Positions 30,605-31,630 of a stretch of DNA of 64,000 nt are shown in pieces. Source of the DNA: Gemmatimonadaceae bacterium (GTDB lineage Bacteria; Gemmatimonadota; Gemmatimonadetes; Gemmatimonadales; Gemmatimonadaceae). The stretch is from contig JADZDM010000005.1 of assembly GCA_020851035.1 (NCBI GenBank), positions 434,001-498,000 of the forward strand. Reading direction: 5' to 3'. The notes beneath the pieces were generated by a model. That model had not been told where the DNA came from and searched no databases. It saw only the letters and a list, made by a program, of their open reading frames with translations. Within the stretch, counting starts at the first letter, position 1. Each line of letters opens with the position of its first letter. The position numbers and the translations under genes are program-made.

Positions 30605-31630
30605 GTGACGCGCACCGCACCATGGACGCCCAGCGCCGAGCAGATGGCGCTGTGGCCTGACATCTCCGGCAACGCCATCAACGGCGTGGGAGAGGGGCAG
30701 GTACGGCGTCCGACGCCGGTGTACTGGCACGCGCCCGAGTCCACGCCGCATGGCCGGCTGCAGCTCTGGTTCTACTCGCAGATGACACCGCTGGTGGCCG
30801 CGGCCCGGCAGGTGCGCATGCAGGCCGCCGAGTTGCCGGTGGCACCCGTCACCGGTGACCCTGAGGAGCACGGTGCCGCGGACTGGACGCGGATGGTGAA
30901 GCAGGCCGCGGTGGACGTCGGCGCCGATCTCGTCGGCATCACGCGGGTCCGGCCGGAGTGGGTGTACGAGGGCCACGAGGTCCCGCAGCAGTGGGCCATC
31001 ATGCTCGGCCTGCAGCATGACTGGAACGCCCTGCGCACCGCACCGGAGGACACGGCAGCGGCCGAGGTGATCCTGCAGTATGCCCGCGGCATGAAGGTGG
31101 CGAAGGGGCTGGCCGGCTGCATCCGGTCGCGGGGGCACGAGGCCACGCCGCTCGGCGGACCGATGGCGTTCCCGATGCTGCTGGTGCCGGCGGCGATCGA
31201 GGCCGGTTTCGGTGAACTCGGCAAGCACGGCTCGGTGATCAACCGCCGCCTCGGCTCGAACTTCCGCCTCGCGTGCGTGCTCACCGACATCCCGCTGCTG
31301 GCGGAGGTTCCCGACACGTTCGGTGCTGACGACTTCTGCACCCTCTGCCAGTCCTGCGCCACCGCCTGCCCACCGGCGGCCATCACCACGGAGAAGAAGC
31401 TGGTGCGCGGCGTGGTGCGCTGGTCGGTGGACTTCGACCGATGCCTGCCGTTCTTCAACGAGCATCAGGGCTGCGCGGTCTGCCTGGCCGCGTGTCCCTG
31501 GAACCTGCCCGGCGTGGCCGACACGCTGGTCGTCAAGATGGCCAGGCGCCGACAACAGCAACAGCAACAGCAACAGCAACAGCAACAGCAACAGCAACAG
31601 CAACAGCAACAGCAACAGCAACAGCTTTGA
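30605..31630 (+). CDS. RdhA/QueG-like 4Fe-4S protein with polyglutamine tail
   Basis: About 341 residues from GTG 30605; the frame is open from 30497 and the true start is uncertain (also ATG 30644). The conserved part starts NAINGVGEGQVRRPTPVYW. The C-terminal ferredoxin-like domain has CTLCQSCATACPPAAI and CLPFFNEHQGCAVCLAACPW, giving ligands for two [4Fe-4S] clusters, as in reductive dehalogenases and epoxyqueuosine reductase. No Tat signal, so probably cytoplasmic and non-respiratory. The protein ends in 24 consecutive glutamines (31553-31624), then Leu-stop; this tail is encoded by a hexanucleotide repeat that merges into a type B palindromic element, which also provides the stop codon. 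Catalytic role unproven; no corrinoid gene nearby. Confidence 0.75.
   Translation: MTRTAPWTPSAEQMALWPDISGNAINGVGEGQVRRPTPVYWHAPESTPHGRLQLWFYSQMTPLVAAARQVRMQAAELPVAPVTGDPEEHGAADWTRMVKQAAVDVGADLVGITRVRPEWVYEGHEVPQQWAIMLGLQHDWNALRTAPEDTAAAEVILQYARGMKVAKGLAGCIRSRGHEATPLGGPMAFPMLLVPAAIEAGFGELGKHGSVINRRLGSNFRLACVLTDIPLLAEVPDTFGADDFCTLCQSCATACPPAAITTEKKLVRGVVRWSVDFDRCLPFFNEHQGCAVCLAACPWNLPGVADTLVVKMARRRQQQQQQQQQQQQQQQQQQQQQQQQL
31553..31624 (+). repeat. Hexanucleotide microsatellite (caacag)12
   Basis: Twelve uninterrupted copies of caacag in frame with the Fe-S protein, giving alternating CAA/CAG glutamine codons. The last copy coincides with the left terminus of the type B element (gcaacagc), so the tract looks like an expansion of that terminus. 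Perfect repetition implies recent slippage and likely length variation between strains. Confidence 0.95.

What the first reader, a model, noticed from the sequence alone, without database searches (positions are those of the whole stretch)
31553..31630. Polyglutamine tail created by expansion of a mobile-element terminus
Twelve perfect caacag copies encode 24 glutamines at the C-terminus of an Fe-S protein, and the last copy is the gcaacagc terminus of the type B element. A perfect hexamer tract in a coding frame is rare in bacteria and implies strain-level length variation, which would change protein length without frameshift.
Basis: partly seen in the sequence, partly recalled or inferred. 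Interest (0 to 1): 0.6.

Follow-up and report, generated by a model that had tools for sequence, protein, structure and literature searches.

The report
Glutamine tail from expanded element end
In a Gemmatimonadaceae-like bacterium, a short repetitive DNA element lies against the end of an iron-sulphur enzyme gene; its six-base end motif has multiplied to twelve perfect copies, giving the protein 24 extra glutamines and a new stop codon, an unusual route by which repeat DNA can lengthen a protein.

Summary
In detail: twelve perfect CAACAG copies (31553-31624) encode 24 glutamines at the end of a reductive-dehalogenase/QueG-like Fe-S protein. None of 37 homologue C-termini has a Q run above 1. 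The tract abuts a ~210-bp palindromic element, one of 58 copies in 1.33 Mb sampled; 85 of 101 anchored element ends carry the same [C/G]AACNG hexamer just outside the arm, usually once. The stop codon (TGA, 31628-31630) is the element's own: read as CAA CAG, the cap runs CAA CAG CNT TGA. Two more genes in this genome (one in this window, ending at 44406) end the same way with unexpanded caps (..ELQQH*..EQQKL*); their same-genus homologues do not. CAACAG arrays of four or more copies recur in other Gemmatimonadaceae, 11 of 14 at outer ends of palindromic elements with differing arms. Best reading: DNA-level expansion of an element-borne hexamer, in the one frame the element stops promptly. Strain-level length variation, read support and any effect on the protein are untested. 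The parts have precedents (Coxiella QMITE, BrickBuilt, Rickettsia palindromic elements); the combination giving polyglutamine was not found in the papers searched.

The parts
30497..31630 (+). Fe-S protein gene, reductive-dehalogenase/QueG-like; longest ORF starts at ATG 30497, more likely start GTG 30605 (341 aa). C-terminus ...LVVKMARRR-Q24-L-stop
   Evidence: Fer4_7; TIGR02486 and TIGR00276 below cut-off; phmmer to PceA and NpRdhA-type structures
31553..31625 (+). Perfect (CAACAG)12 array plus 1 base, encoding 24 Gln
31628..31630 (+). TGA stop codon of the gene, lying inside the element arm (CTT TGA CGC)
31626..31664 (+). Left arm of the type B element
   Evidence: inverted repeats I3 and I20
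31715..31741 (+). Internal hexamer palindrome GGGAACTGCGGTTGCAGTTGCAGTTCC, the second hexamer site of the element
   Evidence: equivalent site holds 7 CAACAG copies in the C22/C28 copy
31753..31799 (+). Inner hairpin CGAGGCCCCGATGCGC...GCGCATCGGGGCCTCG
   Evidence: whole element MFE -168 kcal/mol, z -15.3
31813..31852 (-). Right arm of the element (inverted copy of the left arm)
31853..31865 (-). Right hexamer cap, unexpanded: GAACAGCAACAGC on the minus strand
44389..44625 (+). Second type B element; its left cap GAACTGCAACAGC and TGA (44404-44406) are read as ...PPELQQH-stop by the upstream conserved gene (start about 43897)

Best explanation
A palindromic intergenic repeat element with a (C/G)AACNG hexamer cap outside each arm came to lie against the 3' end of the Fe-S gene, replacing its last residues and stop codon. 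The gene enters the cap in the CAA-CAG frame, the only frame in which the element supplies a prompt stop (CAA CAG CNT TGA). The cap on the gene side then expanded at DNA level, most simply by replication slippage, from one or two hexamers to twelve, giving Q24-L-stop without frameshift. Shown: sequence, frame, element membership, absence of the tail in homologues, recurrence of unexpanded read-ins at two other genes. Inferred: the order of events, slippage as the process, and that the tail is neutral or nearly so.
For: 58 element copies in 1.33 Mb, median 214 bp. 85 of 101 anchored ends carry a [CG]AACNG hexamer directly outside the arm: 68 once, 16 twice, 1 twelve times. Tandem hexamer doublets: 55 of 91 lie in or within 90 bp of elements, a span of 1.7% of the sample. 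The nearest sister copy (C5:185831-186058, 93% identical over 222 bp) has a single hexamer at the same end. 37 homologue C-termini have Q runs of at most 1. At the only three believable ends where a gene's stop lies inside the element, the frame is the Q frame and the stop is the element's TGA: Q24L*, LQQH*, EQQKL*; same-genus homologues of the latter two end ..ESWVKALLT* and ..HPLLHASVR*/..HPLLHATVR* with no element in the 40 bases after the stop. All 24 codons strictly alternate CAA/CAG, as expected of recent DNA-level expansion rather than selection on glutamine. Arrays of 4 or more CAACAG in other family genomes: 11 of 14 sit at the outer end of an inverted repeat, none on the other side.
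Against: The copy-number distribution at outer ends in this genome jumps from 2 to 12 with no intermediates; only the internal site of the C22/C28 copy is in between. Array length is unverified in reads; another array of this genome coincides with a contig break (41-base overlap). Three other family genomes carry arrays of 4 or more without a detectable palindrome. The insertion is not demonstrated by an empty site at the orthologous position.
Confidence: 0.82

Rival explanations
1. The polyglutamine tail is a functional, selected part of the protein (for example an interaction or tunable-length tail), and the resemblance to the element end is secondary.
For: The protein's Fe-S motifs are intact and the tract keeps frame at any copy number.
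Against: No homologue has it; strict CAA/CAG alternation over 24 codons argues for DNA-level expansion; the same cap lies outside genes at most other copies.
Confidence: 0.06
2. The array length is an assembly artefact (expanded or collapsed) of an ordinary 1-2 hexamer cap.
For: MAG-like assembly; C22 and C28 break in another hexamer array with an exact 41-base overlap; reads were not available.
Against: Assemblers more often collapse than lengthen perfect arrays (own knowledge); arrays of 4-10 copies at comparable element ends occur in other assemblies, including single-contig G095 and same-genus G002.
Confidence: 0.08
3. The array is a chance microsatellite in the gene's 3' end that merely lies next to the element.
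For: One unrelated long hexamer array exists in the sample (GTGGCA x9 at C21:125723, no element recognised there).
Against: The same hexamer is the regular outer cap at 85 of 101 ends, in register with the arm, and the other cap of the same element is GAACAGCAACAGC.
Confidence: 0.04

Closest known systems
QMITE1/QMITE2 of Coxiella burnetii (PMC5896051)
   Same: Palindromic multicopy elements at gene 3' ends that donate C-terminal residues and a stop codon; EnhC of strain Dugway presumably gains 33 residues from QMITE2
   Different: No tandem hexamer cap, expansion or homopolymer is described in the passages read; no sequence relation tested
BrickBuilt MITE of Porphyromonas gingivalis (PMC4596501)
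   Same: An inverted-repeat element that carries a tandem array
   Different: The array is a 23-nt internal minisatellite; always intergenic according to its abstract
Rickettsia palindromic elements (reviewed in PMC10969869)
   Same: Repeat elements read in frame with host genes
   Different: Whole elements inserted in ORFs, encoding a conserved peptide; here only the outermost cap is translated, at the C-terminus
Phase-variable simple sequence repeats of bacteria (own knowledge)
   Same: Short tandem repeats prone to slippage
   Different: A hexamer changes length without frameshift, so no on/off switching of the frame is expected

Membership tests
[quoted passage not shown]
   58 copies in 1.33 Mb, median 214 bp, inverted arms
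[quoted passage not shown]
   No orthologous empty site was aligned base by base; same-genus gene ends without the element exist but synteny was not established
[quoted passage not shown]
   Three Y1 transposase genes found, no type B or type A arm or hexamer doublet in their 3.3-kb loci; other transposase families not examined
REP/RAYT system | Palindromes of the same kind flanking the Y1 (RAYT) transposase gene | tested here: not met
   for the two arm types and the hexamer doublet searched
Phase-variable contingency locus | Copy number varies among strains and alters expression or frame | not testable with these tools
   One genome per species held; a hexamer cannot shift frame

The most novel reading that the evidence does not exclude
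Across Gemmatimonadaceae, palindromic intergenic elements with different arm sequences share a CAACNG hexamer end module that repeatedly expands into arrays; because this cap is stop-free while the arm stops exactly the glutamine frame, the elements act as modular C-terminal tail donors that can grow glutamine tails of variable length on neighbouring proteins.
Probability: 0.35. Interest if true: 0.65.

Novelty: new variant of a known kind. Interest (0 to 1): 0.45.

Why it matters
It gives a concrete, stepwise example of how a homopolymer tail can arise in a bacterium: an element end is read as a short glutamine-containing tail and a stop at two genes, and the same kind of end, expanded twelve-fold, gives 24 glutamines at a third. 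It also ties microsatellite expansion in these genomes to the ends of palindromic elements, and predicts which genes could vary in length between strains.

Tried and rejected
Rfam over the whole window: no family. Literature search for arm sequences: no paper. A fourth apparent read-in (L226..RTATA*) was rejected because the 98-aa ORF overlaps a more plausible methyltransferase-like ORF on the other strand (that identification is by eye). G106's Q-rich array (L128) is a mixed CAG/CAA/CAC coding repeat with no palindrome, so not the same thing. The other long hexamer array of the sample (C21:125723) can be read as LPLPLP in a signal-peptide-like stretch on the minus strand; no element recognised there. 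Structure prediction was not run: a glutamine tail would be modelled as disorder and settle nothing.

Full report
Observation. The window is G000:C5:434001-498000 of a 4.97-Mb, 34-contig genome, 70% G+C; the named records closest at this protein include Gemmatimonadaceae MAGs. At 31553-31625 there are 12.2 perfect copies of CAACAG. In frame this is (CAA CAG)x12, CTT, TGA: 24 glutamines, leucine, stop. It is far from chance, the longest perfect hexamer array in 864 kb of this genome, and the only glutamine run of five or more in coding-like frames of 1.33 Mb.

The gene. The ORF (30497-31630, likely start GTG 30605) has a 4Fe-4S dicluster domain and resembles reductive dehalogenases and QueG below the curated cut-offs; the nearest solved structures are reductive dehalogenases such as PceA. 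Relatives at 64-69% identity exist in four other genomes of the 60 searched, one in the same genus. All 37 readable homologue C-termini, from several phyla, end 20-38 residues after the start of the CPW/CPF motif with no Q run above one. The window protein follows them to ..LVVKMARRR and then enters the tract, so its last few residues and original stop have been replaced.

The element. Immediately after the tract come inverted arms (I3, I20) around an inner hairpin; the 249-nt unit folds at -168 kcal/mol, z -15. A DNA search found 123 matching pieces in the genome. A census over 1.33 Mb found 58 copies, median 214 bp; in the 29-copy census most lay between convergent genes, a few tens of bases past stop codons. 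Of 101 ends where the arm start could be anchored, 85 carry [CG]AACNG directly outside the arm: once in 68, twice in 16, twelve times in one, the window's. Such hexamer doublets are concentrated at elements: 55 of 91 fall in 1.7% of the sample. In a separate test, CAACAG and CAACTG are followed by an inverted repeat in 6-7% of occurrences, against 0-1% for control hexamers and 0.8% at random. The closest sister copy (93%, C5:185831) has a single hexamer at the corresponding end. Another copy, apparently split between contigs C22 and C28, has seven CAACAG at its internal hexamer site, so both hexamer sites of the element can expand.

Reading frame. Cap and arm run (CAACAG)n C N TTGACGC. Read as CAA CAG this gives CNT TGA: an immediate stop inside the element. 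In the other two frames the start of the arm is open. Of 116 element ends, three have a believable gene whose stop lies inside the element, all in the glutamine frame: the Fe-S protein (Q24L*), the gene ending at window 44406 (..PPELQQH*), and a PP2C-like gene at C5:333-1232 (..PSEQQKL*). Same-genus homologues of the last two end differently and show no element after the stop. So the tail here is the expanded version of something that occurs unexpanded twice more in the same genome. That three of three are in the Q frame may reflect tolerance (in other frames the extension would run on through the arm); three cases are too few to prove it.

Mechanism. Strict CAA/CAG alternation without a single change in 24 codons points to recent expansion of the DNA unit and not to selection for glutamine. 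Replication slippage is the simplest process (inferred). The jump from 2 to 12 copies without intermediates at outer ends is not what a smooth process would leave in one genome, but one locus is too few to judge.

Wider occurrence. CAACAG arrays of four or more copies occur in 10 of 179 genomes of the family, with no match to the reversed control pattern. Outside this genome 14 such arrays were read; 11 have an inverted repeat immediately inside the array and none on the other side, although the arms belong to different sequence types. With five or more copies the array is confined to the window's family among 395 genomes of the phylum. The element of the window itself has no match in one same-genus genome and two short ones in the other, so its amplification looks lineage-specific.

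Novelty. Elements that donate C-terminal residues and a stop codon are known (QMITE, PMC5896051), as are in-frame palindromic elements (Rickettsia, PMC10969869) and a MITE with an internal minisatellite (PMC4596501). I did not find an element-end microsatellite that makes a polyglutamine tail in the papers searched, which is not proof of absence. Limits: one genome per species, no reads, element census by fuzzy matching on a sample, gene calls by codon composition only.

Noticed in passing
window 29740-29893, 40180-40389, 41701-41853: Three copies of a different palindromic element (GTTCCCACGGAGCCACGGAG... arms) without hexamer caps; the two read in full have an inner GGAAC[TC]GC...GCAGTTCC-like palindrome similar to that of the type B element.
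   Followed up: partly
window 29643-29680: Perfect 8-bp tandem array GCTCGGGT x4.8 just upstream of one of those elements.
   Followed up: no
G000:C21:125723 (L181, about position 5723): Nine copies of GTGGCA; on the minus strand they can be read as LPLPLP... in a signal-peptide-like stretch, another hexamer expansion possibly in a coding frame; no element recognised there.
   Followed up: partly
L126 (G095): The far end of an ACACGGAT-arm element carries a 9-bp array (AACAGCCTG, about 8 copies), an expansion of its terminal motif with a different unit length.
   Followed up: no
many element ends, e.g. C21:471350, C21:465869: A second end subtype reads GGCATCNTGAACNGC outside the arm.
   Followed up: no
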